Below are positions 6,263-19,736 of a stretch of DNA of 36,973 nucleotides, one piece after another (positions within the stretch are counted from its first letter, which is position 1; each line of letters opens with the position of its first letter). Where the stretch lies: contig CACYJP010000004.1 in NCBI GenBank assembly GCA_902774725.1, forward strand, positions 1-36,973, in the 5' to 3' direction. The position numbers and the translations under genes were made by a program. This DNA comes from an uncultured Lachnospiraceae bacterium. Lineage in GTDB: Bacteria; Bacillota; Clostridia; Lachnospirales; Lachnospiraceae. The notes beneath the pieces are model-generated. The model had not been told where the DNA came from and ran no database searches. It saw only the letters and a program-made list of their open reading frames with translations.

Positions 6263-6280
6263 TTTGTAGGGGTGTAGTTT

Positions 6281-6997
6281 ATGGAGAAGGATGAACTCAT
6301 TTTAGGGGATTATAGGTTTACTTCCAGATTCTTTCTGGGATCAGGAAAAACTGCAAGGTATTCACAGGAACTGATCAATACTGCGGTTGATATAGCCGGA
6401 GTTCAGATGATATCAGTTGCGATAAAAACACTGGGGGATAAGGATAGTGTGCTTAATCATATCCCGGAGGGGATAGTCGTACTGCCAAATACGCTTGGCG
6501 CAACTTCGGCTGATGAGGCAATAAGCATGGCAAGAAGAGCAAGAGAAAAAGGGCTCGGAACCATGGTTAAAATAGAGATAATGAACGATTCAAAGTATCT
6601 GCTTCCTGACAATAAGGAAACAATCAAGGCAACAGATATTCTTGCAAAGGAAGGCTTTAAGGTTTTGCCTTATATCTATCCATCGCTTTCACTTTGTCGA
6701 AAGCTCGTTGAAGCAGGCGCGATAGGACTTATGCCACTTGCTTCACCAAGTGGTTCAAATAAGGGACTTGCAACGCGCGATTTTATTCAGGCGCTGATTA
6801 AGGAGATGGATGTTCCGATCATAGTGGACGCCGGAATAGGCAGACCATCTCAGGCCTGTGAGGCTATGGAAATGGGGTGTGCGGGAGTAATGGCAAACAC
6901 TGCTCTTGCAACAGCGGGAAACCAGTCACTTATGGCACAGGCATTTAAGAATGCAATAATTGCAGGACGTGAAGGCTATCTGTCAAGTAAGCAGTGA
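6281..6997 (+). CDS. thiG: Thiazole synthase ThiG-like protein, without other thi genes
   Basis: ThiG builds the thiazole phosphate ring of thiamine from 1-deoxyxylulose 5-phosphate, dehydroglycine and ThiS thiocarboxylate. The 238-residue protein has family landmarks in order: LPNTLGATSADEA near residues 68-80, the Schiff-base Lys K97 in MVKIEI, LLPD near 107-110, AIGLMPLASPSGS, and IIVDAGIGRPSQA with ANTALATA near the end. No thiS, thiF, thiH or thiE lies nearby. Some segments are more divergent than usual (SLSLCRKL in place of the usual DP-containing loop), so a related activity is possible. Confidence 0.82.
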   Translation: MEKDELILGDYRFTSRFFLGSGKTARYSQELINTAVDIAGVQMISVAIKTLGDKDSVLNHIPEGIVVLPNTLGATSADEAISMARRAREKGLGTMVKIEIMNDSKYLLPDNKETIKATDILAKEGFKVLPYIYPSLSLCRKLVEAGAIGLMPLASPSGSNKGLATRDFIQALIKEMDVPIIVDAGIGRPSQACEAMEMGCAGVMANTALATAGNQSLMAQAFKNAIIAGREGYLSSKQ

Positions 6998-7082
6998 TAG
7001 TATGCATTGACAGTAAGTAGTGATAGTAAGTAGTGGGGCTTGTAGACAGTAGTAATAGGAATAATCAGAAAAGAGGATAAAA

Positions 7083-7265
7083 ATGGCGACGGCAAATTCG
7101 TGTGAGTATTGTGCATATTTTATGTATGATGATGAGACTGAGGAGTATATCTGCGACATCAATATGGATGAGGATGATTACAGCAGACTTGTATCAAATC
7201 ATTTTAAAGAATGTCCTTATTTCAAGGATGGTGATGAGTACAAGGTTGTAAGACATCAGATGTGA
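7083..7265 (+). CDS. Small four-cysteine protein (DUF6472-like)
   Basis: A 60-residue acidic protein with cysteines at 7, 10, 24 and 44, spaced as if to bind one metal ion. It resembles the small clostridial family I know as DUF6472 (CEYCAYFMYDDETEEYICDINMDEDD then CPYF and DEYKVVR), of unknown function. AAGAGG precedes the ATG. Its stop overlaps the end of the convergent rhomboid gene by 10 bases. Confidence 0.75.
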   Translation: MATANSCEYCAYFMYDDETEEYICDINMDEDDYSRLVSNHFKECPYFKDGDEYKVVRHQM

Positions 7266-7852
7266 TTTTTGTTTTTCTTAAAATAGTAAAATGTATAAGA
7301 CAAAAGAAGTCCCATTAAGAATCCGCCTATATGAGCGTAGAAGTTAATGCTCTTATCAAGTATTCCTGGAATAAACATCAGTGCGATACCGACGATTGCT
7401 CTGTTTATAGGGAAGTAAGCTCTTGTCCTTCTGTCAAGGGCGAAGATTAAGATACATGAAACAATTCCAAAGACTGCACCTGAAGCACCTGCGCTTACTG
7501 TATTAGCGCCGGTGTTTTTTTCTATAAGCAGAGTGAAGAGATTTCCTGCAAGTCCGGATGTGATGTAGATGATAACGAACTTAAGCTTTCCGAAATATTC
7601 TTCTACATATGTGCCGATTGCAAAAAGTGCGACCATATTTCCGAACAGATGTTCGAATCCAAAGTGCAGGAACATGGCCGTAAATAATCGAAACCACTCC
7701 CCCTGTTCTAAAACAAGAGGAGTGGTCTGTGCACCAAACTTAATTGCAACTTCGCTGGAATCTGATCCACCGAATGCTGTTTCGATTAAAAATATAATAA
7801 CATTTATCGCTATAAGCGTATATGTCAGTACTGGTATATTTTTTGTTCTCAA
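7256..7852 (-). CDS. Rhomboid family intramembrane serine protease
   Basis: A six-helix membrane protease of about 198 residues. The catalytic pair is Ser124 in GASGAVFG and His174 in FYAHIGG; HLFGNM carries the helix-2 His and Asn (H68, N72) that form the oxyanion site. The start is inferred: the TTG at 7852 overlaps the pta stop (TTGA), with AGGAAGAG shortly upstream, so translation is probably coupled to pta. The open frame reaches an ATG at 7933, but that would place 27 implausible Cys/His-rich residues inside pta. Substrates are unknown. Confidence 0.85.
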   Translation of the reverse strand: MRTKNIPVLTYTLIAINVIIFLIETAFGGSDSSEVAIKFGAQTTPLVLEQGEWFRLFTAMFLHFGFEHLFGNMVALFAIGTYVEEYFGKLKFVIIYITSGLAGNLFTLLIEKNTGANTVSAGASGAVFGIVSCILIFALDRRTRAYFPINRAIVGIALMFIPGILDKSINFYAHIGGFLMGLLLSYTFYYFKKNKNHI

Positions 7853-8868
7853 CTGTTTGCTTTCTCTTCCTTCTGTGCTGCGGCAAATGCTGCAGTGATT
7901 ATTGCCATTGAGTAAACCTCCTGAGCTGTACATCCACGTGACAGATCATTGATAGGAGAATTAAGTCCGAGAAGAATAGGACCGAATGCTTCGAAGTTAC
8001 CGATTCTCTGAGCAAGCTTGTAACCGATGTTACCGGCGTTGATGTCAGGGAAGATAAATGTATTGGCATGTCCTGCTACTGCTGAACCAGGTGCCTTCTT
8101 TGCTGCTACATTTGGTGAAACAGCAGCGTCGAACTGAAGCTCTCCATCGATAGGAATGTCAGGAAGGAGTGCCTTTGTCTTCTCACATGCGTTACGAACC
8201 TTGTCAACGCTTTCACCCTTACCTGAGCCCTTTGTTGAGTAGCTGAGGAATGCAACCTTTGGCTCCATGCCGAAGATCTTTGCACACTTAATTGTCTCTG
8301 TAGCGATTTCTACAAGATCGTCCTCTGATGGATCGATTGTGATAGCGCAGTCACCCATCGCGATCACTTCGTTATCACCTGTTGCTCTTGGACGAACAAG
8401 AATGAAACATGATGTAACGATGTTGTTGCCCGGCTTTGTTTTTACAAGCTGGAATGCAGGTCTAACTGTATCAGCTGTTGAATATGTAGCTCCTCCAAGG
8501 AGACAATCACCATAGCCCATTTTTACGAGCATAGTTCCGAAATAGTTATTCTGTCCGAGAATCTTTATAGCATCCTCTCTTGTTACTCCCTTTGACTTAC
8601 GAAGTTCTACAAACTCATCAACCATTTTATCAAAGTCTTCAAACTTAGCCGGATCTATTATTTTAGCTCCTCTGATGTTGAAGCCGCTTTCCTCTGCAAC
8701 CTTATGTATCTCATCTTCATTTCCGAGAAGGATTGGCTCCAGGAAGTTGCTTGCAAGGAGTCTTGATGACGCTTCAAGGATACGAGGATCGTTTCCTTCT
8801 GTGAAAACAATCGTCTGATGATGTTCCTTAAGTTTGCCAATAAGTTTTCCAAAACCAAAAACTGCCAT
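7849..8868 (-). CDS. pta: Phosphate acetyltransferase
   Basis: Pta interconverts acetyl-CoA and acetyl phosphate, the first step of acetate formation in fermenting Clostridia. The 339-residue length is that of the short, single-domain form. Diagnostic segments are TEGNDPRIL near residue 23, GGATYSTADTVRPAFQLVKT, MGDCAITIDP, LSYSTKGSG, DGELQFDAAVSP, and the C-terminal GPILLGLNSPINDLSRG. The usual partner ackA is not adjacent; a rhomboid gene overlaps the stop instead. A strong promoter lies just upstream. Confidence 0.95.
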   Translation of the reverse strand: MAVFGFGKLIGKLKEHHQTIVFTEGNDPRILEASSRLLASNFLEPILLGNEDEIHKVAEESGFNIRGAKIIDPAKFEDFDKMVDEFVELRKSKGVTREDAIKILGQNNYFGTMLVKMGYGDCLLGGATYSTADTVRPAFQLVKTKPGNNIVTSCFILVRPRATGDNEVIAMGDCAITIDPSEDDLVEIATETIKCAKIFGMEPKVAFLSYSTKGSGKGESVDKVRNACEKTKALLPDIPIDGELQFDAAVSPNVAAKKAPGSAVAGHANTFIFPDINAGNIGYKLAQRIGNFEAFGPILLGLNSPINDLSRGCTAQEVYSMAIITAAFAAAQKEEKANS

Positions 8869-8930
8869 ATTATTTTACCCCATTCCTTAATATTTTTTTT
8901 GTAGTTCTTAAGCTGAACTATAACATTTCT

Positions 8931-8959
8931 ATTATAGGATTGTTATGTTGATTTTTCAA
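8931..8959 (-). promoter_or_regulatory. Promoter of pta
   Basis: Read on the minus strand, TTGAAA (8959-8954) and TATAAT (8936-8931) are separated by exactly 17 bp, a near-consensus sigma-A promoter 60-90 bases before pta. Confidence 0.8.
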
Positions 8960-9002
8960 GTGTCATCGAACATTTATTATCATATTATATGGGCTTCTTT
9001 TA

Positions 9003-9032
9003 TTGACATACAATTATAGTAGGCATTAAAAT
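9003..9032 (+). promoter_or_regulatory. Promoter of the 5'-nucleotidase gene
   Basis: TTGACA (9003-9008) and TAAAAT (9027-9032) with 18 bp between, about 40 bases before the start codon. It is divergent from, and does not overlap, the pta promoter. Confidence 0.7.
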
Positions 9033-9074
9033 GTTATTACAACTGTAGTTTGGTTGATAGATGGAGTGAGTTTT

Positions 9075-11495
9075 ATGAAGAGGTCTATTAAAAACAAAAA
9101 AAACAGAGGGGTTCTGTTAGGTTTCGGACTTGCATATCTTCTTTTTTGGGCGAGTATCTTCGGGGGTGTCAGGCCGGTTGAAGCGGACGATGACACTATA
9201 TACACGCTGAAAATATTTGAAACCTCGGATGTTCATGGCGCAATCGCGATGGTTCAGGAGGATGGTACTCAGTACAGGATGGCCTTCATTTCAGATAAAA
9301 TTAAGGATGTGCGTGGCTACGGCGATGCTTATCGCAAGGATAAGGCTATTCTTGTTGATACAGGAGATGTGTATCAGGGAACGGTTTTATCTAATCTTCA
9401 AAAAGGTCAGTGTATGGCAGCGGCCTATGAATACATGGATTATGATGCGGTAGGTGTCGGAAACCATGAGTTTGACTGGGGAATTGAAACGGTAATTAAT
9501 GCTGATAAAACTATGCGTGACTACGATTTTGGTGGATATACAGGTGTTAATGATGTACCGATCACAGTTTCCAATATGTACAGGTACGGTGAAAAGCTTG
9601 CCCTGGGAGAGGACTATATAATACTTGATAAGGTTGCAACAGATGCTGATGGAAATGAGATACCTGTTAAGGTTGCTATAATCGGCTTTGCAGATGATTA
9701 TTCATCTTCTGAAAAGTATTCTCAGTATTCCGGTCTGGGCTATGATACCAAGCTGGATTATAACGAGCTCAATGCCTTAGCCAGTAACCTTGAGGATAGT
9801 GGTGCGTGTGATGCGACAGTAGTATTATTCCATGGGGAAGCTAAAATATGTGCTGACTCTTTAGGTTCCGGAAGCAAGGTTGATCTGGTCTTGGGAGGAC
9901 ATACCCATAGGAATGCTAATGGTGTAACAGATTGGGGGCTTCCTTACCTTCAGCCTACAAACGCAGCGGCAGCATATACAACTGCAGATCTCGAGTTTAA
10001 AAAGGTCGGTGATGATACCATATATGTTGATTCTGCAAACAGACGTTATGAGAGAGTTACGAAGGATATACAAAAGCTCTACAATCTTCCGGAAAATGTA
10101 GATGAACTGGATAAGGATATAATTGATATATCAGATGCGGCTATTGCTGATGTAGATGAAGTTCTCAAAACAAATATAGGTTATATAACAGAAAGTGCAA
10201 GTAAAAGTGATTTTATTCCGGAAAGTAGTAATCATTCGACGACTTGTGGAAACTGGATGGCATCGATTTTGCAAAGGGCTGTAAATGCGGATATCGGAAT
10301 CGTAAATACTGGTGCAGTAAGAAGAGGGTGGTTTGTAAAAGACGGCAGCCTTGATATAAATTATTCTGATGTTTATGAGATGTTTCCTTTTGATGATGAA
10401 TTATATGTCTATGAAATCACCTATGAGGATCTTAAGGAGGCGATGGAATATTCGTGCAAAAAAACCGGACGGGGCTTGCTATCCAGAATGGTTGGAATTA
10501 ATGTTTATTTAGATGATACAGATTTTTACGCGCTTGAGACAACAGATGGAAGTGTTATCTATGTCGATGGTAAATGGAAAGGCGACTGGAAGGATAAAAA
10601 GGTTCGTATCGCAGTAACTGAATTTTGTGCCACTACTGAAAGAACAGAAGAAGGTTATTCGAATCCTCTTATTAAATGGAATAATGATGGCAGACTTGTT
10701 TCTCATGATTCTTTTATCAGAGATGGTGCATTTACGGTACTGGAGCAGGAAGCTGCAGAAAATGACGGTCATCTGAATATAGATACACATTCGTACTTTA
10801 TAGAAGAACATAAGAAAGATCCACACTGGTATCTGACTTATGACGGAGTACTCACAATAGAAAAGGAAATAGGTGAGATTCCGGAGAATATGTTTGAAAA
10901 ATATAGCGATCAGAAGACGGTTGTTTTTGAAGGCACAGCAGAAGAGTGGTACGCTATGAAGATAAGCGATAAATGGCTGATCGAAAGTAAGGATGTAAGT
11001 ATTAAATGTAATGATAAGACTATTATCGCTGCAAGCTATATGTGCGTGAATTATAACCGGCATGTATATGATGCTCCTGCCTATAGCTGGAGTGATGATA
11101 ATAGTAAGGTTACAGCCTCACATTTTTGTCCTATATGTGAGAATGAAGAAACTGAAACTGTGGAAAGTACATCGGCAGTAACAAAAGAGGCTACTGAGGC
11201 AGAAGCAGGAGAGAGAACATATACTGCTGAGTTTAAGAATCCGGCATTTGAAAAGCAGACTAAGAAGGTTGAGATTCCAAAGCTTACGCCGAGTGATAAT
11301 CCGGATGATGATAAGCCGGCAGAACCATCAACTGAAAACTCCAATGTGACACCACATGGTAGTGCAGGTAATACTCCTTCGACCGGAGACGAAGCGATGA
11401 TCATACCGTTTATGATAGTATTTATGTTGTCCGCTCTTGCGGTTGTAGTTATAGTTATCGAGAAATCGAGAGGAAAGAAAACTGCCGGAAAATAA
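9075..11495 (+). CDS. Cell-wall anchored 5'-nucleotidase/2',3'-cyclic phosphodiesterase (UshA-like)
   Basis: An exported enzyme of 806 residues that would release phosphate or nucleosides from extracellular nucleotides. A signal peptide (MKRSIKNKKN, hydrophobic core, cleavage near VEA-DDD) leads to a calcineurin-like domain with SDVHGA, VDTGDVYQG, GVGNHEFDWG, VVLFHGE and LGGHTH metal motifs. The 5'-nucleotidase C-terminal domain carries NHSTTCGNWM and GIVNTGAVRRG. A module containing HFCPICENEE, common in clostridial surface proteins, precedes the Pro-rich tail. The end is a sorting signal: TPSTGD, a hydrophobic helix, then KSRGKK. The ATG at 9075 has GGAG eight bases upstream; the TTG at 9054 is rejected. 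Confidence 0.9.
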   Translation: MKRSIKNKKNRGVLLGFGLAYLLFWASIFGGVRPVEADDDTIYTLKIFETSDVHGAIAMVQEDGTQYRMAFISDKIKDVRGYGDAYRKDKAILVDTGDVYQGTVLSNLQKGQCMAAAYEYMDYDAVGVGNHEFDWGIETVINADKTMRDYDFGGYTGVNDVPITVSNMYRYGEKLALGEDYIILDKVATDADGNEIPVKVAIIGFADDYSSSEKYSQYSGLGYDTKLDYNELNALASNLEDSGACDATVVLFHGEAKICADSLGSGSKVDLVLGGHTHRNANGVTDWGLPYLQPTNAAAAYTTADLEFKKVGDDTIYVDSANRRYERVTKDIQKLYNLPENVDELDKDIIDISDAAIADVDEVLKTNIGYITESASKSDFIPESSNHSTTCGNWMASILQRAVNADIGIVNTGAVRRGWFVKDGSLDINYSDVYEMFPFDDELYVYEITYEDLKEAMEYSCKKTGRGLLSRMVGINVYLDDTDFYALETTDGSVIYVDGKWKGDWKDKKVRIAVTEFCATTERTEEGYSNPLIKWNNDGRLVSHDSFIRDGAFTVLEQEAAENDGHLNIDTHSYFIEEHKKDPHWYLTYDGVLTIEKEIGEIPENMFEKYSDQKTVVFEGTAEEWYAMKISDKWLIESKDVSIKCNDKTIIAASYMCVNYNRHVYDAPAYSWSDDNSKVTASHFCPICENEETETVESTSAVTKEATEAEAGERTYTAEFKNPAFEKQTKKVEIPKLTPSDNPDDDKPAEPSTENSNVTPHGSAGNTPSTGDEAMIIPFMIVFMLSALAVVVIVIEKSRGKKTAGK

Positions 11496-11506
11496 GAAAG
11501 TGTATT

Positions 11507-11540
11507 AAAAAAAGCATGTCCCAGTAGACATGCTTTTTTT
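11507..11540. terminator. Bidirectional terminator between the 5'-nucleotidase gene and the RNA array
   Basis: A7, a 7-bp stem GCATGTC/GACATGC with a 6-nt loop, and T7. It works from either side, ending the 5'-nucleotidase transcript and, on the minus strand, the distal array RNA. The terminator at 11865-11894 is its counterpart in the other copy of the 351-bp duplication. Confidence 0.9.
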
Positions 11541-11543
11541 AAT

Positions 11544-11674
11544 AACGACAAGGGAAGGTACTGACCCGATCGGGTTTCCAATATACTCCGTATAACCAGC
11601 CGCCCACAAGGCCATGTAAAGGCTACAGGAATATATTCGTGTGGACATATCGTATAAGATACACCCTTGTTATT
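11544..11674 (-). repeat. Array module 1 (131 bp)
   Basis: On the plus strand it begins AACGACAAGGG and ends CCCTTGTTATT (arms paired with one mismatch and one wobble). The long stem is 11640-11647 with 11601-11608, all pairs formed if U.G pairs are counted on the minus-strand RNA. The pseudoknot is 11628-11637 with 11580-11589, 10 bp with one G.U. The variable segment is about 11555-11579 and contains the self-complementary ACCCGATCGGGT. Confidence 0.85.
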
Positions 11675-11686
11675 ATTTGTATTTAA

Positions 11687-11818
11687 AACGACGAGGGAAG
11701 CGTTTCCCGCCTCTGGGCGCCAAATATATTCCGTACAACCGGCTGTCCGCAAAGCCACATAAATGGTAGCAGGAACATATTCATACGGACGTATCCTAAA
11801 GGATACACCCTCATCATT
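11687..11818 (-). repeat. Array module 2 (132 bp)
   Basis: Arms are AACGACGAGGG and CCCTCATCATT on the plus strand; both differences become G.U pairs in minus-strand RNA. The small hairpin is extended to 6 bp by a paired change (GTATCC/GGATAC). The long stem is 11784-11791 with 11744-11751 (one terminal mismatch). The pseudoknot 11772-11781 with 11723-11732 is fully paired with one G.U. Confidence 0.85.
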
Positions 11819-11827
11819 AGATACTGT

Positions 11828-11855
11828 ATTATATCAGCTTATTCATAAAATGCAA
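11828..11855 (-). promoter_or_regulatory. Promoter of the distal array RNA
   Basis: Minus strand TTGCAT (11855-11850), 16 bp, TATAAT (11833-11828), followed by ACAGT and the module. It is nearly identical to the promoter at 12204-12177 and sits 351 bp from it. Confidence 0.85.
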
Positions 11856-11864
11856 GTAGTAAAT

Positions 11865-11894
11865 AAAAAAGCATATCAATCGATATGCTTTTTT
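11865..11894 (-). terminator. Terminator of the proximal array RNA
   Basis: A6, a 7-bp stem GCATATC/GATATGC (both arms as read on the plus strand: 11871-11877 with 11882-11888), a 4-nt loop and T6. It follows module 3 directly and precedes the promoter of the next RNA copy. Confidence 0.9.
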
Positions 11895-12025
11895 AACGAT
11901 AAGGGATCGGTTTTGATCCCGGGGGAGTTCAAATATACTCCATATAACCAGCCGTCCACAAGGCTATGTAAAGGCTATAGGAATATATTTATGTGGACGT
12001 ATCTAAAAGATACACCCTTATCGTT
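11895..12025 (-). repeat. Array module 3 (131 bp)
   Basis: Arms AACGATAAGGG and CCCTTATCGTT are perfectly complementary. The long stem 11992-11999 with 11953-11960 is perfect and uses a different sequence (CGUCCACA/UGUGGACG) from module 4, a true covariation. The pseudoknot 11980-11990 with 11931-11941 is 11 bp with one G.U. The variable segment, about 11906-11930, holds a GGGATC/GATCCC hairpin. Confidence 0.88.
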
Positions 12026-12037
12026 ATTTTTTATAAA

Positions 12038-12167
12038 AACGATGAGGGAAGCGCCTCCCGCGCGCGGTTCCTAATATACTCCGTACAACCGGCCGTCCGT
12101 AAAGCCATAAAAATGGATGCAGGATTATATTCGTACGGACGTATCTGAAAGATACACCCTCATCGTT
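12038..12167 (-). repeat. Array module 4 (130 bp), nearest the reverse transcriptase
   Basis: Arms AACGATGAGGG and CCCTCATCGTT are perfectly complementary. The small hairpin is GUAUC-UUUCA-GAUAC (12155-12141). The long stem 12134-12141 with 12094-12101 (CGUCCGUA/UACGGACG) is perfect. The pseudoknot 12122-12131 with 12073-12082 pairs 9 of 10 bases. The variable segment, about 12049-12072, is GC-rich. Confidence 0.88.
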
Positions 12168-12176
12168 AGGAACTGT

Positions 12177-12204
12177 ATTATATCAACTTTTTTGTAAAAT
12201 GCAA
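12177..12204 (-). promoter_or_regulatory. Promoter of the proximal array RNA
   Basis: Minus strand TTGCAT (12204-12199), 16 bp, TATAAT (12182-12177), ACAGTTCC, then the first module. It lies between the reverse transcriptase stop and the array. Confidence 0.85.
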
Positions 12205-12230
12205 GTAGTTCTTTATCTGTATTCTAATCT

Positions 12231-13472
12231 TTATCGATCAGCAGGTTTTAAAACGCTTTCATCATCAAAACGGTGATAGTAGCTGTGAACCAAAGGTCTG
12301 AAGCCAAGACGTTTCATATCATCGTAGGTGATTCTGTATTTGGCGTTGGTTTTACGGCCTGTACCTACAAATCTTATGCAGTCCTCTGATACCTTATCTA
12401 TAATATGCAGTCTGTCTGCTGTGGTGATAGTTGGGAATATTCTTTCTATCCAGCTGTATGATTCTTCTTCGGTATCAACATATCTGTATCCATAAAGATA
12501 ACCATCCATGATTCTTGCCATCATTTCAGCGGCTCTTTCTCTTGGATAACGTCCTTTTCTGACTCCTCTGTTCAGGCTGTTTGCACGGTGCTTAAACTTG
12601 TTAGTTACCTTGCTGAAGGTGTTGTCTGCTATATCGACATAACCATTTGCAAACTTTATTCCGAGAAGATCGAGTTCTTCGCCCGGTACAACTATTGCGG
12701 ACTTATCCTCGTTGAATTCAAGATGCAGATCTCCGACCATTTTTACGAGGAGCTTCATATTTTCCTCGGCTTCCTCTTTGGTTTCATTCATGATACAGAT
12801 ATCATCTGCATAGCGGCAGTAGAGGATGCTTCTTTCGGTCATGACCTTATCAACTTCAAGAAGGTTAAGGTTATAAAAGAAGGCTGAGGTCGGATTTCCA
12901 CCCATTACAGAGGTGTATGCTTCAACAACTTCGTCCTTGTAGTAATATTTGCCTCTCCTCATGAGCCACATAATGAATTCTATGAATTCAGGTTCATCTG
13001 AGCAGTACTTCCACAGCTGCTTTTCGAGAATATCTAGATCGATGGACTCGCTGTATCTGTGGATGTCTGACTTAACAGCATAAAGCTTTCTTTCAGGGTC
13101 GAGATTCTTTATTTTGGTAAAGAGATTCCTTGTACGGTTTTCGATTCTTGCAGAATAAAGATTGTCTGAAAAAATGTTGTTGTACTTTCTTATAAGAAGA
13201 TAGTTAAGGAACTGAAGGACTATCTTTTCCTTATCATTAAACTTAAAAACTTTTCTTCTTCTGTTTGAAAGGCTCTTTCTGATCAAAAAGCATGTTGGAA
13301 GATCAAAGTAATAATCCTTGTTTATGAGTCTTTTGATATCGTTATCAAATTCATCAGAGTATATGTAGTTCTGGGTGAATTCGACAAATTCTTTCTCATA
13401 CTTTGTTTTGATCTTTCGCTTTTCCATAAAAGCGTCTTTTTTCTCTTGGGTTATCATTTCCTCAAATAACAT
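12231..13472 (-). CDS. Reverse transcriptase (RNA-directed DNA polymerase) with a downstream RNA array
   Basis: A 413-residue single-gene reverse transcriptase. The palm motifs are present: motif A VKSDIHRYSESI with D136; motif B GGNPTSAFFYNLNLLEVD from residue 191; motif C YCRYADDICI with catalytic D223/D224; motif D HLEFNEDKSAIV; and a LLGIKF grip near 269-274. The N-terminus is basic and the C-terminal 130 residues, ending ITYDDMKRLGFRPLVHSYYHRF, form a thumb-like region I do not recognise. There is no maturase, HNH, nuclease or Cas1 domain. GGGAG precedes the ATG. The gene follows nudix and eda on the same strand after 81 bases, and an RNA array follows it. Motif B has some likeness to diversity-generating retroelement enzymes, but family placement is open. 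Confidence 0.92.
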   Translation of the reverse strand: MLFEEMITQEKKDAFMEKRKIKTKYEKEFVEFTQNYIYSDEFDNDIKRLINKDYYFDLPTCFLIRKSLSNRRRKVFKFNDKEKIVLQFLNYLLIRKYNNIFSDNLYSARIENRTRNLFTKIKNLDPERKLYAVKSDIHRYSESIDLDILEKQLWKYCSDEPEFIEFIMWLMRRGKYYYKDEVVEAYTSVMGGNPTSAFFYNLNLLEVDKVMTERSILYCRYADDICIMNETKEEAEENMKLLVKMVGDLHLEFNEDKSAIVVPGEELDLLGIKFANGYVDIADNTFSKVTNKFKHRANSLNRGVRKGRYPRERAAEMMARIMDGYLYGYRYVDTEEESYSWIERIFPTITTADRLHIIDKVSEDCIRFVGTGRKTNAKYRITYDDMKRLGFRPLVHSYYHRFDDESVLKPADR

Positions 13473-13553
13473 AATTTCTCTCCCTTAATATGTGGAAATC
13501 TTAGCACACATATCATCACATAATTGTCACACATTCTAACGCGGTGTACATAA

Positions 13554-14207
13554 CTATGCAAGTGTATTTTTAACCAGCTCGGCGGCTTCTGCAACCTTTT
13601 GTTTAATTATGTCAAAGCTGCCTGCGGCAATCATATCCTTTTTAACCATCCAGCTTCCTCCACAGCAGAAGATCTTGTCAGATTTGAGGTAGTCAACAAC
13701 ATTTTCAGCATTTATTCCGCCGGTTGGCATAAACTTTACCTTTGGAAATGCTGCTCCGATAGCCTTGATGGTTTTAAGTCCGCCTGCATTTTCTGCAGGG
13801 AAGAACTTCACATGATCGAGTCCCAGGTTTACTGCCTGGATGAGCTCGGTCGGTGTCATAATTCCCGGACATACCGGGATATCTATATCGATACAGTGTT
13901 TAACAACGTCTGCGTCAAAGCCCGGTGATACGATGAATTTTGCACCGGCATTTACAGCTCTGTCTACCTGCTCAACTGATAAAACGGTTCCGGCACCTAC
14001 AAGCAGCTCAGGATACTTTTCTGACATAATCCTTATCGATTCTTCAGCAGCATCTGTTCTGAAGGTTACCTCTGCAGCCGGAAGACCTCCCTTTATGAGA
14101 GCATCTCCAAGTGGTGCAGCATCCTTTGCATCGTCAAGTACGACTACAGGAATGATTCCTATCTCGGAAAGCTTCTTTAACATTTCCTCTGTTTTTGCAC
14201 TGTTCAT
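13554..14207 (-). CDS. eda: 2-dehydro-3-deoxy-phosphogluconate / 4-hydroxy-2-oxoglutarate aldolase
   Basis: A class I aldolase of 217 residues that splits KDPG to pyruvate and glyceraldehyde 3-phosphate (Entner-Doudoroff and hexuronate catabolism). E46 in AEVTFRT and the Schiff-base K134 in DHVKFFPAE are in place, with GAGTVL, FIVSPGF, PVCPGIMTPTE and MPTGGI as usual. The ATG at 14207 is preferred because GGAGGTAAAGGT precedes it; an upstream in-frame start at 14240 lacks a site. It is 36 bases downstream of the nudix gene and probably in its operon. No edd or kdgK lies nearby. Confidence 0.93.
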   Translation of the reverse strand: MNSAKTEEMLKKLSEIGIIPVVVLDDAKDAAPLGDALIKGGLPAAEVTFRTDAAEESIRIMSEKYPELLVGAGTVLSVEQVDRAVNAGAKFIVSPGFDADVVKHCIDIDIPVCPGIMTPTELIQAVNLGLDHVKFFPAENAGGLKTIKAIGAAFPKVKFMPTGGINAENVVDYLKSDKIFCCGGSWMVKKDMIAAGSFDIIKQKVAEAAELVKNTLA

Positions 14208-14243
14208 ACCTTTACCTCCGTTTGTAATTGATAAAATCACGGT

Positions 14244-14786
14244 TTATTTGTTTTTGGTTGGATCCTTGTGTGTGAATGCTCCATTATGATTTCTCAGGAA
14301 ATACAGAAGAGAAATGAAGGAAGTTTTATATAGTACAAATTCCTTTTTGTGAAGCATGTCGAGTATCTCTTCTTCGGTAGCCCATGCAACCTTTTCGACC
14401 TCGGTTTTCTGAAGCTCAAGTGAGTCGATATCTACATCCATATTTATGGTATAGATATCATTGAAGCCGCCGTCGAAGTATATGGTCATAGCGGGACGTA
14501 TACCGGTCAGATCATAATCAATTCCAACCTCTTCCTTTAGTTCACGTGATGCTGCCTGCTGGCTCGTGTCACCTGCCAGGGCGCTACCGCCTGCGGTTAT
14601 ATCCCACATACCGGACCAACCACTCTTAAATGGTTGCCTCTTCTGGATCAGCATTCTTCCGTCGCTTCCGAAGATGCATACGTGTACAACAAGTCTGTAG
14701 TAACCTTCAGGAACCTTATTGCCCCTTTCCAGGGTTTTCCCGGTTCTGTTTCTGTTAACATCATAAAGATCAAAACTTTCTGCCAT
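14244..14786 (-). CDS. Nudix hydrolase
   Basis: A 180-residue cytoplasmic Nudix enzyme that would hydrolyse a nucleoside diphosphate-linked compound. The Nudix box runs from the Gly in GGSALAGD to RELKEEVGI near residues 66-89, with Asp in place of the first conserved Glu. The preceding WSGMWDITAGG and the opening FDLYDVNRNRTG resemble the isopentenyl-diphosphate isomerase-like/YfcD branch. AAGGGGG precedes the ATG. It heads a minus-strand set nudix-eda-reverse transcriptase. Confidence 0.85.
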   Translation of the reverse strand: MAESFDLYDVNRNRTGKTLERGNKVPEGYYRLVVHVCIFGSDGRMLIQKRQPFKSGWSGMWDITAGGSALAGDTSQQAASRELKEEVGIDYDLTGIRPAMTIYFDGGFNDIYTINMDVDIDSLELQKTEVEKVAWATEEEILDMLHKKEFVLYKTSFISLLYFLRNHNGAFTHKDPTKNK

Positions 14787-14809
14787 ATTTTTGCCCCCTT
14801 ACTTTTTCT

Positions 14810-14839
14810 ATTTTACCCTATAAATATATGACTTGACAA
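14810..14839 (-). promoter_or_regulatory. Promoter of the nudix-eda operon
   Basis: Minus strand TTGTCA (14839-14834), 18 bp, TAAAAT (14815-14810). Its -35 shares bases with the -35 of the divergent promoter at 14833-14861. Confidence 0.6.
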
Positions 14840-14861
14840 GCTTAGATGCATGTGATAAATT
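14833..14861 (+). promoter_or_regulatory. Promoter of the solute-binding lipoprotein gene
   Basis: TTGACA (14833-14838), 17 bp, TAAATT (14856-14861) with TGTGA just before it. The near-palindromic CTTGACAAG is used in both directions. Confidence 0.65.
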
Positions 14862-14916
14862 ATTTTGGTTTTGCAAAAAACTATTACAAATGTTTATAGA
14901 TGAAGGGAGTGTTTTT

Positions 14917-17214
14917 ATGAGATTTTTAAAGAAAGTTTTATGTGCCTCGCTCGCGGTATCGATGTCACTTAGTCTTATGGCATGTGGTGATGACAAGAAA
15001 TCCGGAAGCGATAATAAAGAGAGTATGGTTGAGGAAGCGAAAGAAAATGTTTCCGACAGTATCTATCAAGAGGATGGTGGATTTAAAATCTCTGGAATAA
15101 CAGGGGAAGAGAGAGAGTTTGTAGCATCAAATGGAAATATCTACATATCTGCACTTGAAACTGAAGCTCCTACAGCGACAGACGCTGATTCTGAATTTGA
15201 TGGTGTAAACATGGATGGCGCAGTAAGCAGGATTTATAAGGTTTCATCAGATGGCGGAAACGCTGAGGTAATTCACGAAAGCACTAAGGGTGAATTTGAA
15301 TATATAGAAAAGCTTGGTGTAGGAGCTGATGGAGTGGTTTATGCTCTTATCAATACCGGTGATAATTACAAGATGTGTAAGTATGATGAAAACGGAGAAA
15401 GCGAAGTTGGTGATGCTACAAGCTTTATGGACGATGAGGGCGGATCAGCAGAGGCTTTTGTTGTAGATAAGGATGGAAACTTTATCTTTAAGTATGCGGA
15501 AAGCTTGAAAGTGGCAGATAGCTCATTAAATGAAAAGTCCAGCTGTAACTCTGAGGATATGATTGAGAGTATAGGACTTGATTCAAATGGTGATGTTGTT
15601 GTAGCAACAATTGAACATTCAGAGGATTATGAAAGCACTGAAATATCTGCAAGAAAGGTTGATGTAAATACAGGTAAGCTTACAGATAAACATAAAATGG
15701 ATACCTCTTCACTGTCCTGGGAGGCTCAGCTTATCATGGGTGATGGAGGCTACGATTTCTTCTTTGTGACAGGCTCTGCTTTATATGGATACAATTTCGA
15801 TGGTGATAAGACTACGAAGGTTGCTGATTTTAATGCTTCAAGCATAAATGGTTCATATATACATTTATGCTGGATGGATGGTATTAACACATTTTATGTA
15901 AGTGAATATGATCCTACAACATATGATTATCTTCCTGGAGTAAAAAAATTCAACAAGGTTGATCCTTCAGAGTATGAGAAAAAAAATGTTCTTACACTTG
16001 TTACGATTTATGGAAGTGCTAACCTGTCTCAGGCAGCAATTGATTATAACAACTCTCAGACAGAGAATATGGTTCAGGTAATTGATTATACTGATTCAAG
16101 TGATCCGGAGGGTAAGTTCAGTGCTGATATAGCTGCAGGAGTTAAGCCTGATTTCCTCGATGTTACTCCGGGAATCAGTGATATCTCAATAAATCAATAT
16201 ATATCTAAGGGTATGCTCGAAGACCTGACTCCATATATTGAAAAAGATGAGGATGTTTCAGCTTCAGATATTCTTCCTACAGCTTATGAAGCAATGAAGA
16301 TTGATGGTAAGGTATACTTCGTATCACCTTCAGCATACATTCATACGCTTGTAGGTAAGAGTTCAGAAATAGGTTCTGAATATGGATGGTCATATGGAGA
16401 GTTTAAGGATTATATAACCTCTAAGCCGGAAGGAACAAGACTTTTTGACTCATCAAATAAGATGGATAATCTTAGCAGCTTCTATGGTCCTATCTGCTCT
16501 GATTTTATTGACTGGAAAAAGGGCGAATGTCATTTTGATTCTCAGGAATTTAAGGACCTGCTTGAGGTTTGTAATATAGGTTCAAATGAGGAGATGGATT
16601 GGGAGAATACCAGTTCAAGAGAAGAGGGCATAGCTAAGGGTGAGCAGCTGTTTGTTCAGGGTTCACTTACAGCTGAAGAGGTTGCATGGGACAATCAGGT
16701 ATTTGGAAATGACGCATCATACAAGGGCTTCCCAAGTATGGATCAGTCAGGTGGAAGATTTGAGTTCAGTAGTGCAATCGCAATGACCAGCGATTGCTCA
16801 GATAAAGAAGCAGCGTGGGATTTCATGAAGTATTTAATATCAGAAGAATATCAGGGTAAATATCTTCAGAACCTTTATGGAGTACCTACAAGAAGTGATG
16901 TATTCGAAGAGTATCTTAACCGTCTTACAGCAACCAAGGATGGAACTGATAAGTATGGAAATAAGATCAAGGTTCGTAATAACAGTATGGACTTCGATGG
17001 AGTAAGTATCAAAATAAAGCCTCTTACAAACGAGGAGATTGATACATACAAAAAGATGATCGAAAACTCAAAGGGTATATGGGAGCCGGATCAAAAGGTA
17101 CTTGATATCGTAAAAGAAGAGGCTGCTGCTTACTTCGCCGGAGATAAATCCGTGGACGATGTCTGCAAGGTTATCCAGGACCGTGTAACTACATACGTAA
17201 ACGAAAGCAAATAA
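14917..17214 (+). CDS. Extracellular solute-binding lipoprotein with an N-terminal beta-propeller-like domain
   Basis: A 765-residue lipoprotein. The signal peptide ends in the lipobox LMAC, with Cys23 as the lipid anchor. Residues ~60-370 are repeated, blade-like segments (IYISALE, VVYALIN, NFIFKYA, YDFFFVTG) suggesting a beta-propeller. From about residue 375 (NVLTLVTIYGS) it is a family 1 carbohydrate ABC solute-binding domain, including KPDFLDVTPG, WSYGEFKDYI, KEAAWDFMKYLISEEYQ and LYGVPTRSDVFEEY. GAAGGGAG precedes the ATG at 14917; the frame is open to 14833. No permease genes are adjacent, so its transporter partners are elsewhere or it works as a sensor. Confidence 0.85.
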   Translation: MRFLKKVLCASLAVSMSLSLMACGDDKKSGSDNKESMVEEAKENVSDSIYQEDGGFKISGITGEEREFVASNGNIYISALETEAPTATDADSEFDGVNMDGAVSRIYKVSSDGGNAEVIHESTKGEFEYIEKLGVGADGVVYALINTGDNYKMCKYDENGESEVGDATSFMDDEGGSAEAFVVDKDGNFIFKYAESLKVADSSLNEKSSCNSEDMIESIGLDSNGDVVVATIEHSEDYESTEISARKVDVNTGKLTDKHKMDTSSLSWEAQLIMGDGGYDFFFVTGSALYGYNFDGDKTTKVADFNASSINGSYIHLCWMDGINTFYVSEYDPTTYDYLPGVKKFNKVDPSEYEKKNVLTLVTIYGSANLSQAAIDYNNSQTENMVQVIDYTDSSDPEGKFSADIAAGVKPDFLDVTPGISDISINQYISKGMLEDLTPYIEKDEDVSASDILPTAYEAMKIDGKVYFVSPSAYIHTLVGKSSEIGSEYGWSYGEFKDYITSKPEGTRLFDSSNKMDNLSSFYGPICSDFIDWKKGECHFDSQEFKDLLEVCNIGSNEEMDWENTSSREEGIAKGEQLFVQGSLTAEEVAWDNQVFGNDASYKGFPSMDQSGGRFEFSSAIAMTSDCSDKEAAWDFMKYLISEEYQGKYLQNLYGVPTRSDVFEEYLNRLTATKDGTDKYGNKIKVRNNSMDFDGVSIKIKPLTNEEIDTYKKMIENSKGIWEPDQKVLDIVKEEAAAYFAGDKSVDDVCKVIQDRVTTYVNESK

Positions 17215-17243
17215 CACTTCAATCGATAGGTTGATCGAGAGAT

Positions 17244-17294
17244 AATGGGATGATAAGTCAAAGGGGACGATTCTTCTTGACTTATTGTCCCGTT
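17244..17294 (+). repeat. Imperfect palindrome of the GGGACGATTCTT...TTGACTT type, terminator-like
   Basis: Arms 17244-17261 and 17277-17294 pair over 18 positions, with ATAAGTCAA/TTGACTTAT perfect and three wobbles further out; a TTTT follows. The loop repeats the GGGGACGATTCTT motif. It follows the lipoprotein gene and may end its transcript. A related shorter copy lies at 21309-21336. Two GTGACACATT repeats follow at about 17304 and 17322. Confidence 0.6.
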
Positions 17295-17493
17295 TTGCAT
17301 TATGTGACACATTTGCTTTTTTGTGACACATTGTCCGTTTTACTTTTTATTGACAATATATAAGTAGTAAGTTACACTTAACCGTTGTAGAAATTCATAT
17401 ATTTATAAGGGATTAACATATTATATAAGAAGTTCTAATATCATAAATATATGATAAAAATAAATAACTAAAAGAATAACAGAGGATAAAGCA

Positions 17494-18369
17494 GTGGCTA
17501 AGAAGATTGGAAGAAATGATCCGTGCTGGTGCGGCAGCGGAAAAAAGTACAAGGCTTGTCATGAAGCATTTGACCGTAAGATAGAAATGCTTGCGAATCA
17601 GGGACACAAGGTTCCTACTCAGAACATGATCAAAACTCCTGAGCAGATCGCCCTTATAAAGGAGAGTGCGAAGGTAAATGTAGAGTGTCTCGACGTGGTT
17701 GCCGACAAGATATGTGTCGGAATGAGTACCGAGGACATAAACAGAATAATAAATGAGGTGTGCGAGAAGCATGGTGCGATTCCTGCACCACTTAATTATG
17801 AAGGCTTCCCGAAGAGCGTCTGCACATCAGTGAATGATGCGGTATGCCACGGTATCCCTGACGAAAACGAAATACTTCAGGACGGAGATATAATCAACGT
17901 CGATTGTTCAACCATACTGAACGGATATTTCTCCGATTCATCACGTATGTTTATGCTTGGAAATGTATCTGACGAAGACAGAAAGCTGGTTGAGACTGTT
18001 AAAGAAAGCATATATCTCGGACTTGAAGAGGTTAAGCCTTGGGGCTTCCTTGGAGATATGGGACAGGCAATAAATGATCACTGTAAGGCTGCAGGCTACA
18101 GCGTAGTAAGAGAAATCGGCGGTCACGGAGTCGGAATCGAATTCCACGAAGAGCCGTGGGTAAGCTACGTAACCAGAAGAGGTACAGACATGGTCATGGC
18201 ACCGGGTATGATGTTTACCATCGAGCCTATGGTGAACGCAGGCATGCCTGACGTATTTGTAGACGAAGAAAACAACTGGACCGTTTATACAGAAGACGGC
18301 TCACAGTCAGCTCAGTGGGAGATACAGGTTCTCGTAACTGAGGACGGACACGAAATCATATCATGGTAG
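17494..18369 (+). CDS. map: Methionine aminopeptidase with N-terminal SEC-C zinc motif
   Basis: Removes the initiator Met from new proteins. The 291-residue protein opens with a SEC-C motif (CWCGSGKKYKACH, ligands C11, C13, C22, H23), a ribosome- or SecA-type tag seen on clostridial type I enzymes. The dinuclear metal site is complete: D137, D148, H211, E244 and E276. Translation starts at GTG 17494 after AGAGGATAAAGCA. It is followed after 35 bases by the lysA-like gene. Confidence 0.95.
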   Translation: MAKKIGRNDPCWCGSGKKYKACHEAFDRKIEMLANQGHKVPTQNMIKTPEQIALIKESAKVNVECLDVVADKICVGMSTEDINRIINEVCEKHGAIPAPLNYEGFPKSVCTSVNDAVCHGIPDENEILQDGDIINVDCSTILNGYFSDSSRMFMLGNVSDEDRKLVETVKESIYLGLEEVKPWGFLGDMGQAINDHCKAAGYSVVREIGGHGVGIEFHEEPWVSYVTRRGTDMVMAPGMMFTIEPMVNAGMPDVFVDEENNWTVYTEDGSQSAQWEIQVLVTEDGHEIISW

Positions 18370-18404
18370 TAAGCTAGTGGGAAGTCAAAGAAAAGAGGAA
18401 TATT

Positions 18405-19736
18405 ATGAGTAAGATACCATTTGTTACAAAAGAACAGGTCGAGGAAATAGTTAAGACCTACCCAACCCCATTTCATATATATGATGAAAAAGGAATCAGA
18501 GAAAATGCACGAGCAATGAATAAGGCCTTTTCATGGAACAAGGGCTTCAAGGAGTACTTCGCAGTAAAGGCTACCCCAAATCCAACTATCCTGAAGATAC
18601 TTCACGAGGAAGGCTGCGGAACTGACTGTTCATCTATGGCAGAGCTCGTTATTTCAGAAAAGTGCAAAATCACAGGTACAGACGTAATGTTTTCGTCAAA
18701 TGAAACGCCTGCTGAGGAGTTTGTAAAATGTGCAGAAATCGGAGGCATCATCAACCTGGATGATATAACACATATAGACTTTGTACTCAGTGCTTTAGAC
18801 GAGGCTGTAAAGAGCGGTCGTCTCTCACAGGAAGCTCTGGGTGGTGAAGGAAGACGCCTTCCAAAGCGTATGTCATGCCGCTTCAATCCGGGTGGAGTTT
18901 TCAGACTTGGTGAAAGTACAGAGGCTGTTCAGGTTATGGATAACCCAGGCGAAGCAAAGTACGGAATGACCAAGGATCAGATCATTGAGGCTTACAAGAG
19001 ACTGAGTGAGCTCGGTGTTGAGGAGCTTGGAATCCACAGCTTCCTTGCAAGTAACACACTTTCAAATGAGTATTATCCTGCACTCGCAAAGATACTTTTC
19101 GAGCTTGCAGTTGAGATTAAGGAGAAGACCGGTGTAGCACTCAGCTTCATCAATCTGTCAGGTGGTGTCGGAATCGCTTACGAGCCGGATAAGCCTGCAA
19201 ATGATATAGCAGCTATCGGAGCCGGAGTACATAAGGTATTTGATGAGGTTCTCGTTCCTGCAGGAATGGGCGACACAGCAATCTTCACAGAGCTTGGAAG
19301 ATTCATGCTTGCACCTTACGGACACCTCATCACAAAGGCAGTTCACGAGAAGCATACCTATAAAGAGTATATCGGTGTAGATGCCTGCGCAGCAAACCTG
19401 ATGAGACCTGCGATGTATGGCTCATATCATCATCTGACAGTTCTCGGAAAAGAGGATGCACCGGCAACAGAAACCTATGATGTGGTTGGATCACTTTGCG
19501 AGAATAACGATAAGTTTGCAATCGACAGAAAATTACCGAAGATAGATATCGGTGATTATCTCTGCATCCATGACACAGGAGCACACGGCTTCTCAATGGG
19601 CTATAACTATAACGGCCGCCTCTGGTCTGCAGAGCTTCTTCTCCGCGAGGATAACTCAGTTATCTGCATCAGACGTCCTGAGACTCTCGATGATTACTTT
19701 GCAACACTCGATGGCTTCTGGGATGTGGAAGTGTAA
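18405..19736 (+). CDS. lysA: Diaminopimelate decarboxylase-like PLP enzyme (fold type III)
   Basis: A 443-residue alanine-racemase-fold decarboxylase that would make lysine from meso-diaminopimelate. K55 in YFAVKATPNP binds PLP, H211 is in GIHSFLAS, the Gly-rich phosphate loop is LSGGVGI near 251, and C365 in GSLCENND supplies the active-site Cys from the partner subunit. AHGFSMGYNYNGRL matches the C-terminal tyrosine region. It is somewhat longer than, and divergent from, standard LysA, so a related substrate is possible. AGAGG precedes the ATG, and a strong terminator lies downstream. Confidence 0.85.
   Translation: MSKIPFVTKEQVEEIVKTYPTPFHIYDEKGIRENARAMNKAFSWNKGFKEYFAVKATPNPTILKILHEEGCGTDCSSMAELVISEKCKITGTDVMFSSNETPAEEFVKCAEIGGIINLDDITHIDFVLSALDEAVKSGRLSQEALGGEGRRLPKRMSCRFNPGGVFRLGESTEAVQVMDNPGEAKYGMTKDQIIEAYKRLSELGVEELGIHSFLASNTLSNEYYPALAKILFELAVEIKEKTGVALSFINLSGGVGIAYEPDKPANDIAAIGAGVHKVFDEVLVPAGMGDTAIFTELGRFMLAPYGHLITKAVHEKHTYKEYIGVDACAANLMRPAMYGSYHHLTVLGKEDAPATETYDVVGSLCENNDKFAIDRKLPKIDIGDYLCIHDTGAHGFSMGYNYNGRLWSAELLLREDNSVICIRRPETLDDYFATLDGFWDVEV

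What the first reader, a model, noticed from the sequence alone, without database searches (positions are those of the whole stretch)
11507..13472. Reverse transcriptase followed by a tandem array of structured RNA genes: candidate new system
A lone 413-residue YADD reverse transcriptase is followed on the same strand by two tandem copies of a ~300-nt RNA gene, four structured modules in all. Retrons place their RNA before the enzyme, diversity-generating retroelements have template/variable repeats and an accessory gene, group II introns enclose the enzyme, and CRISPR-linked enzymes sit with cas1. None fits. The conserved RNA folding, dedicated promoters and linkage suggest the RNAs are templates, primers or guides for the enzyme.
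Basis: partly seen in the sequence, partly recalled or inferred. Interest (0 to 1): 0.95.

Follow-up and report, generated by a model that had tools for sequence, protein, structure and literature searches.

The report
Reverse transcriptase with pseudoknotted partner-RNA array
A little-studied bacterial reverse transcriptase (group UG26) travels with its own knotted RNA, and in this bacterium that RNA has multiplied into four copies sharing one scaffold but each carrying a different short segment that may be the template the enzyme copies into DNA.

Summary
A 413-aa YADD reverse transcriptase (RT; 12231-13472, minus strand) is followed on the same strand by two ~350-nt units, each with two ~130-nt structured RNA modules. 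The RT is classifiable: PADLOC RT_UG26, 307 bits (next UG profile 69), a defence-type group with no functional study in the papers searched. A related RNA accompanies UG26 RTs widely: 109 of 118 distinct loci by covariance model, and all 19 RNA-positive of 299 family genomes have the RT (p 7e-22). Its core is a covarying H-type pseudoknot. The commonest order is RTasCOG2852 gene, RNA, RT. The window lies in a deep side clade without RTasCOG2852 (0 of 12 genomes), with the RNA downstream, antisense or elsewhere, and with recurrent RNA arrays (four here, three in a relative, away from its RT). Between copies one ~25-nt segment (hairpin P4 plus linker) is hypervariable, and it tends to hold an A-B-A' repeat like the DRT10 template; that test was post hoc and failed in mainstream RNAs. 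Best explanation: a Class-2-like UG ribonucleoprotein copying a short RNA template into DNA. Binding, templating and defence are inferred. New variant of a known kind.

The parts
12231..13472 (-). UG26-type reverse transcriptase, 413 aa, YADD
12177..12204 (-). promoter-like start of RNA unit 1 (TTGCAT-16-TATAAT, TGA before the -10)
   Evidence: sequence; not listed by the consensus scan
12038..12167 (-). RNA module M1 (P1, P2, pseudoknot, P3, P4, linker)
12134..12140 (-). M1 pseudoknot strand s1 (GTCCGTA)
   Evidence: 7 pairs, 5 with changes on both sides, 100% of cells paired in 15 RNAs
12095..12101 (-). M1 pseudoknot strand s2 (TACGGAC)
12049..12072 (-). M1 variable segment (P4 hairpin + linker), candidate template
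11895..12025 (-). RNA module M2
11906..11931 (-). M2 variable segment, candidate template
11865..11894 (-). terminator-like hairpin and T-run of unit 1
   Evidence: sequence; not listed by the scan
11828..11855 (-). promoter-like start of RNA unit 2
   Evidence: sequence; not listed by the consensus scan
11687..11818 (-). RNA module M3
11698..11722 (-). M3 variable segment, candidate template (A-A' match of 2 nt only)
11544..11674 (-). RNA module M4
11555..11579 (-). M4 variable segment, candidate template (A-A' match of 2 nt only)
11503..11544 (-). terminator-like hairpin of unit 2

Best explanation
This is a UG26 reverse transcriptase and its partner RNA. The RNA is made from its own promoter, folds into a closing stem (P1), a small hairpin (P2), an H-type pseudoknot (s1/s2 around the long stem P3) and a hairpin (P4), and acts in trans as a ribonucleoprotein with the enzyme. 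The pseudoknot and P1-P3 are the constant scaffold that the enzyme holds; the segment P4 plus the linker to P1' is the template region, copied into short, probably repetitive, cDNA in the manner of Class 2 UG systems (DRT9, DRT10, DRT3a). In the window's clade the RNA gene has multiplied and the template segment has diversified. Shown here: RT identity, RNA structure with pseudoknot, RT-RNA linkage, multiplication, hypervariability of one segment. Inferred: transcription, RNP formation, template use, repetitive product, antiphage role.
For: RT: PADLOC RT_UG26 2.9e-92, next UG profiles UG17 (DRT10), UG4, UG27, UG21; fold neighbours include DRT9 and DRT2 RTs besides group II RTs. Linkage: 19 of 19 RNA-positive of 299 family genomes are among the 32 RT-positive (hypergeometric 7e-22); 109 of 118 distinct RT loci have an RNA match by model R1 or R2, three of them weak, 94 upstream in sense within ~225 nt. 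Structure: 17 mainstream RNAs 97.0% of cells paired vs 86.5 shuffled, 84 vs 22.8 double-change cells; 15 window-clade RNAs 92.3 vs 79.9 and 73 vs 22.6, pseudoknot 7 pairs with 5 changed on both sides and 100% paired. Trans: RNA away from the RT in G371 and G331 and in the genomes of L083 and L098. Template region: in 10 of 10 pairs of related RNAs (6 of them among the window's four) the least conserved 26-column window falls on P4+linker; A and A' agree within RNAs more than across them, n=13, p 0.003-0.011 by summed repeat length. Literature: Class 2 UG RTs copy ncRNAs encoded nearby into tandem-repeat cDNA (PMC13174585 passages; PMC12632851 sections 6, 8, 9).
Against: No expression, binding or cDNA data. 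In the 60 mainstream RNAs tested A and A' do not covary (p 0.28; repeats of 3 or more were fewer than in permutations, p 0.95): the UUU...UUU pattern there may be only motif conservation. The window-clade test was made after the pattern had been seen, on 13 of 15 RNAs, which are related; for repeats of 3 nt or more it is not significant (p 0.17, 0.05-0.16). M3 and M4 have only 2-nt A-A' matches. A often overlaps the loop or 3' arm of P4, whereas the DRT10 template lies downstream of its stem-loop. 13 of the 32 RT-positive family genomes, the window's own among them, gave no match to R2 under strict filters, and one RT (L002) has no RNA by either model genome-wide. The RT model is closest to group II and G2L4 RTs, so the fold does not single out Class 2. 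The ten neighbours scanned are not defence genes.
Confidence: 0.6

Rival explanations
1. The RNA is a protein-bound scaffold or regulator, not a template: it holds the RT inactive or controls its oligomerisation, and the DNA made (if any) is untemplated or templated by something else. The variable segment is simply unconstrained.
For: P4 stays a hairpin though its sequence changes (10 of 15 have at least 4 pairs vs 2.7 expected), as expected of a spacer that needs only shape; mainstream A-A' does not covary.
Against: A-A' agreement within RNAs in the window clade; the characterised Class 2 systems use a template loop, in DRT10 just 3' of a stem-loop (PMC12632851 section 8).
Confidence: 0.25
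2. A and A' are two competing partners for the 5' arm of P4: the segment is a two-state RNA switch and the repeat has nothing to do with templating.
For: A lies in the loop or 3' arm of P4 in several RNAs (M1, L037, L140; my reading of the sequences), so A' could pair with the same 5' arm.
Against: In M2 the repeat extends beyond P4, where alternative pairing would not require it (my reading).
Confidence: 0.12
3. The variable segments act as guides or antisense against other nucleic acids (a guide array on a constant scaffold).
For: Constant scaffold with a different ~25-nt segment in each tandem copy; arrays of four and three.
Against: Most segments keep a hairpin, odd for guides; no target search was made.
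Confidence: 0.05
4. The modules are a non-functional or selfish repeat that merely amplified next to the RT, for instance a small mobile element.
For: Copies differ in number and place between relatives; one copy lies near a contig end beside an IS66-like ORF (L122, by eye); L128 has a truncated copy (by eye).
Against: Compensatory changes throughout, restriction to RT-bearing genomes, promoter- and terminator-like flanks.
Confidence: 0.04

Closest known systems
UG26 'unknown group' RT with RTasCOG2852 (PADLOC RT_UG26, PDLC03764; RTasCOG2852, PDLC03793)
   Same: The window RT matches the RT_UG26 profile over residues 3-401 of 413 and sits beside the mainstream group in the tree; both have the pseudoknotted RNA.
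   Different: The window clade (13 of 115 RTs) is split off by a long branch, has no upstream sense RNA (0 of 13 vs 96 of 102) and no RTasCOG2852 gene (0 of 12 genomes vs 7 of 8 chosen mainstream ones).
DRT10 (UG17), PMC12632851
   Same: RT plus ncRNA with a variable segment 3' of a stem-loop; A-B-A' pattern.
   Different: DRT10 has a SLATT protein and the RNA upstream of it (paper, section 6); UG17 scores 69 bits here against 307 for UG26; no SLATT among the ten window neighbours scanned, not searched further.
DRT9 (UG28) and DRT3a (UG3)
   Same: UG RTs with a nearby ncRNA template; DRT3 also has its RNA downstream (figure legend in PMC13174585); DRT9 structures are fold neighbours.
   Different: Conserved poly-U (DRT9) or ACACAC (DRT3) templates rather than a diversified segment; no RNA arrays in the passages that I saw.
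DRT2 (UG2), PMC12039810
   Same: RT beside a pseudoknotted ncRNA (abstract and passages).
   Different: 280-nt RNA with a 120-nt template that yields a repetitive coding DNA; here ~130 nt in all.
Telomerase RNA
   Same: Pseudoknot, and a stem-bounded short template with alignment repeat, by analogy only.
   Different: In telomerase RNA the template is 5' of the pseudoknot (passage in PMC12039810); here the candidate template is 3' of it. No homology tested.

Membership tests
UG26 RT | RT protein best matched by the UG26 profile | tested here: met
   RT_UG26 307.5 bits; generic RT profile 87.1; next UG profiles 69 or less
UG26 RT | RTasCOG2852 gene in the system (PADLOC lists it under DRT; that it belongs to UG26 is what I found here) | tested here: not met
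   no match in the window's genome and 11 other window-clade genomes; match in 7 of 8 mainstream genomes. A diverged form could be missed
UG26 RT | pseudoknotted RNA linked to the RT (feature found here) | tested here: met
DRT10 (UG17) | UG17 RT | tested here: not met
   UG17 69 bits vs UG26 307.5
DRT10 (UG17) | A-B-A' template downstream of a stem-loop | tested here: inconclusive
   window-clade set p about 0.003 (post hoc), mainstream p 0.28
DRT10 (UG17) | SLATT partner | not tested
   none among the ten window neighbours scanned with Pfam; not searched genome-wide
Class 2 UG / DRT system | ncRNA-templated tandem-repeat cDNA and antiphage activity | not testable with these tools
   needs cDNA sequencing and phage assays
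Retron | retron RT profile | tested here: not met
   retron_St85_RT 37 bits, cut-off 235 (the one retron model listed)
Retron | msr/msd RNA before the RT | tested here: not met
   all four modules are 3' of the RT; no Rfam match
Group II intron | maturase profile and intron RNA | tested here: not met
   86 bits, cut-off 300; no Rfam match
Diversity-generating retroelement | template/variable repeats and accessory gene | tested here: inconclusive
   within 10000-15500 only the modules and four 20-22-nt two-copy matches; no DGR-specific scan
CRISPR-associated RT | cas1 neighbour | tested here: not met
   none among the ten neighbours scanned

The most novel reading that the evidence does not exclude
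An array of telomerase-RNA-like genes: one enzyme is served by several pseudoknotted RNAs with a constant scaffold and different A-B-A' templates, so that a single cell makes several different tandem-repeat DNAs, and the template segment evolves fast, perhaps under pressure from phages that counter a given product.
Probability: 0.28. Interest if true: 0.92.

Novelty: new variant of a known kind. Interest (0 to 1): 0.74.

Why it matters
UG26 has no described mechanism in the papers I could search. The RNA family, its pseudoknot, its link to the enzyme in Bacillota and Bacteroidota, and a side clade without RTasCOG2852 that multiplied its RNAs make it directly testable. If the variable segments are templates, one RT would be served by several different templates, and the telomerase-like repeat synthesis reported for DRT10 would extend to another UG group.

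Tried and rejected
Retron, group II intron, CRISPR RT: profile scores far below cut-offs, no Rfam match, no cas1 among ten neighbours. The 14 Rfam rows at E up to 10 (OrzO-P, mir-1302 and others) are all below their gathering scores. DRT2-like coded product: the modules are too short. Mobile context: tblastn in phages found 4 records, none covering 80% of the query; in plasmids 506 records, 2 of them covering 80%, both annotated ltrA, and the 15 rows listed are at most 28% identical, 10 of them annotated ltrA; of two viral-contig scans one found nothing and one gave two partial relatives at 26-28% that I did not examine. Fold search: closest are group II and G2L4 RTs, then DRT9 and DRT2, so it does not decide the class. 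A mainstream A-A' covariation test failed. One annotated region was fetched and not used.

Rows dropped: 5 duplicate loci before the tally of 118, in which L128 and L130 (99% alike) both still count; 6 duplicates or near-duplicates and 2 rows with a stop in my translation before the tree of 115; in the A-B-A' tests 13 of 15 window-clade RNAs were used and 62, then 60, of 76 mainstream RNAs (14 set aside as poor stem calls or duplicates, then 2 for want of an anchor). The descriptor counts include the duplicates. Weak matches counted as RNA: L068 (E 0.0055), L109 (0.011), L128 (0.072, truncated). L025 and L131 count as 'none' there although the descriptor and my eye find the RNA. The L003 and L082 RNAs, found in their loci, are not significant at genome scale with R1.
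Full report
What is there. The minus strand carries a 413-residue RT (12231-13472, YADD) followed by two units at a spacing of 349-352 nt. Each unit starts with a promoter-like sequence (TTGCAT, 16 nt ending in TGA, TATAAT), ends in a hairpin with a T-run and holds two modules (M1-M2, M3-M4); this is my reading of the sequence, and the consensus scan lists only the second unit's end hairpin. A covariance model of the four modules finds these four in the genome, an antisense shadow of M2 and one row at E 4.2. Rfam has no match at gathering score.

The enzyme. PADLOC's RT_UG26 profile matches residues 3-401 at 2.9e-92; a generic RT profile follows at 87 bits and the next UG profiles (UG17, UG4, UG27, UG21) at 65-69. 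Group II and retron profiles score far below their cut-offs. The AlphaFold model (mean pLDDT 89.8) is closest to group II and G2L4 RTs, then DRT9 and DRT2 RTs. Searches for 'UG26', 'DRT11' and RTasCOG2852 or COG2852 showed no functional study among the papers held; the one listing that joins UG26 with prokaryotic RTs is a cold-seep virus survey (PMC10504277, search listing only). Mestre et al. 2022, the source of the UG scheme according to the papers seen, is not held, so an earlier report of a UG26 RNA cannot be excluded; a passage in PMC12039810 says that Class 2 UG RT genes are frequently associated with an adjacent ncRNA, without naming UG26.

The RNA family. With the model of the four modules (R1) I found matches beside UG26 RTs only ~30% identical. 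A pseudoknot descriptor then hit the sense upstream flank of 82 of 120 loci at score 36 or more, against 10 of 120 shuffled flanks; the other three flank/strand classes gave 28 of 120, 22 of 122 and 24 of 122 against 13, 14 and 11 in shuffles. The mainstream RNA is P1 5' - P2 - s1 - P3 5' - loop - s2 - P3 3' - P4 hairpin - linker - P1', usually with a T-run. On 17 mainstream RNAs the structure with pseudoknot has 97.0% of cells paired (shuffled 86.5), 23 pairs changed on both sides (12.8) and 84 double-change cells (22.8); 0 of 500 shuffles as high on four measures, 2 of 500 on the fifth. There the pseudoknot itself hardly varies (1 of 7 pairs changed on both sides). On 15 RNAs of the window's clade it does vary: 5 of 7 pairs change on both sides and 100% of cells pair; whole structure 92.3% vs 79.9%, 73 vs 22.6 double-change cells, 0 of 500 on four measures, but 112 of 500 for further pair types.

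Linkage. A second model (R2, from 17 mainstream RNAs) found the RNA in 19 of 299 family genomes; all 19 are among the 32 with the RT at E 1e-30 (same handles and totals in both), hypergeometric p 7e-22. One search used strict filters and R2 misses the window's own divergent RNA, so 13 of the 32 RT genomes have no match there; several of them do have one in the locus search. In 37 same-genus genomes seen in both searches all 5 RNA-positive ones (R1) are among the 8 RT-positive. Of 118 distinct RT loci 109 have an RNA match: 98 upstream in sense (94 within about 225 nt), 2 upstream antisense, 7 downstream in sense, 1 downstream antisense, 1 truncated and overlapping the RT end. Of the 9 others, L025 has the descriptor match and L131 shows it antisense by eye only (not confirmed by R1 or R2); L011 and L072 lie at contig ends (the L011 genome, G089, has RNA on another contig; that of L072 was not searched); the genomes of L124 and L129 have it elsewhere, and so do those of L083 (another contig) and L098 (another contig or at least 13 kb away). 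L002 has none by either model.

A third part and its absence. A gene of ~175 aa recurs in 66 of 117 RT loci examined; in 62 of the 66 it lies 147-395 nt before the RT in sense, that is, before the RNA. All 4 members scanned match PADLOC RTasCOG2852 (1.3e-58 for L009; 7e-6 to 3e-5 for the other three, one of which scores slightly better against another profile); Pfam gives nothing significant. That COG2852 is a nuclease-like family is recollection, not tested. In L050, L075 and three genomes with displaced RNA (G382, G383, G089) the gene lies beside the RNA, not the RT; in L030 the RNA precedes it and in L043 it follows the RT. In the tree of 115 RTs the window lies in a 13-row clade (SH-aLRT 100) on a long branch. 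That clade has upstream sense RNA in 0 of 13 rows (mainstream 96 of 102) and an RTasCOG2852 match in 0 of 12 genomes (7 of 8 mainstream genomes, which I chose, some because the gene had been seen there; the profile is made of mainstream members).

Arrays in cis and trans. The window has four modules. G371 (RT 70% identical, no RNA beside that RT) has three tandem modules on another contig, each followed by a terminator-like hairpin and two of the three preceded by a TATACT box. G361 has one behind the RT and one behind what look by eye like smpB and the tmRNA gene. L082 has two antisense behind its RT. So the RNA, if active, can work in trans, and multiplication is recurrent in this clade.

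The variable segment. In all 10 pairs of paralogous or closely related RNAs compared (6 of them among M1-M4), the least conserved 26-column window falls on P4 plus linker (identity 0.36-0.54 vs medians 0.69-0.88). In G371 two modules are 94-96% identical in P1-P3 except the P3 loop (50% of 10 columns), and 40% here. P4 remains a hairpin of at least 4 pairs in 10 of 15 (2.7 expected in shuffles). Of 13 segments 7 hold A-B-A' repeats of 4 or more nt (3.1 expected, p 0.0095), while for 3 or more p is 0.17. Dealing the 3' halves among RNAs gives p 0.003-0.011 for the sum, 0.001-0.004 for repeats of 4 or more and 0.05-0.16 for 3 or more, over four ways of cutting. This was tested after the pattern was noticed, on related RNAs. 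Mainstream RNAs mostly have (A/C)UUUAA or UUCAAA there, with repeats above shuffles (p 0.002-0.008, n 62) but no covariation of A with A' (p 0.28, n 60).

How it most likely works. Papers seen in part (PMC12632851: outline, sections 6, 8, 9; passages of PMC13174585, PMC12039810 and PMC12483538) say that Class 2 UG RTs use a nearby ncRNA and copy a short template loop into repetitive cDNA (A-B-A' just 3' of a stem-loop in DRT10, poly-U in DRT9, ACACAC in DRT3 at an analogous place). The UG26 linker lies in a like place, 3' of hairpin P4. I therefore propose that the scaffold with pseudoknot is bound by the RT and the P4-linker segment is the template. Shown: sequence, structure, linkage, variability. 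Inferred: binding (about 0.9 likely), template in this segment (about 0.5), repeat synthesis by A-B-A' (about 0.4), antiphage role (about 0.6).

Verdict. A real, well-supported RT-RNA system; a new variant (array-bearing side clade without RTasCOG2852) of a known kind (UG26 among UG/DRT RTs) whose RNA I did not find described in the papers held.

Noticed in passing
L009 2848-3372(-) and 65 further loci: RTasCOG2852-like gene, in most cases directly upstream of the RNA in mainstream UG26 loci; N-terminus often MGLF/MSLL-like, C-terminal WWNxRxYV in many. No significant Pfam match in 6 scanned.
   Followed up: partly
L130 (RT), L128 (RNA): Two 99% alike systems of the window's genus look to be decaying in different ways: one RT has an internal TGA, the other's RNA lacks its 5' half (by eye).
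   Followed up: no
L122 1501-1652: In G331 the RNA lies near a contig end beside what looks like an IS66-type ORF (by eye), on another contig than the RT.
   Followed up: no
L141 1501-1649: A second RNA copy in G361, away from its RT, behind what looks by eye like smpB and the tmRNA gene.
   Followed up: no
L138 about 950-1250: Short tandem repeats (CCCTTTGATAGGTAAATGTTG) and a palindrome beside the three-module array, possibly a small mobile repeat.
   Followed up: no
L002 (G193): RT of the side clade in a much longer open frame (1281 aa) and no RNA found; possibly a fusion or a frame artefact.
   Followed up: no
window 5456-19736: The ten neighbours scanned include a 5'-nucleotidase, KDPG aldolase, NUDIX, rhomboid, phosphotransacetylase and ThiG gene; none is a defence gene by Pfam.
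   Followed up: yes
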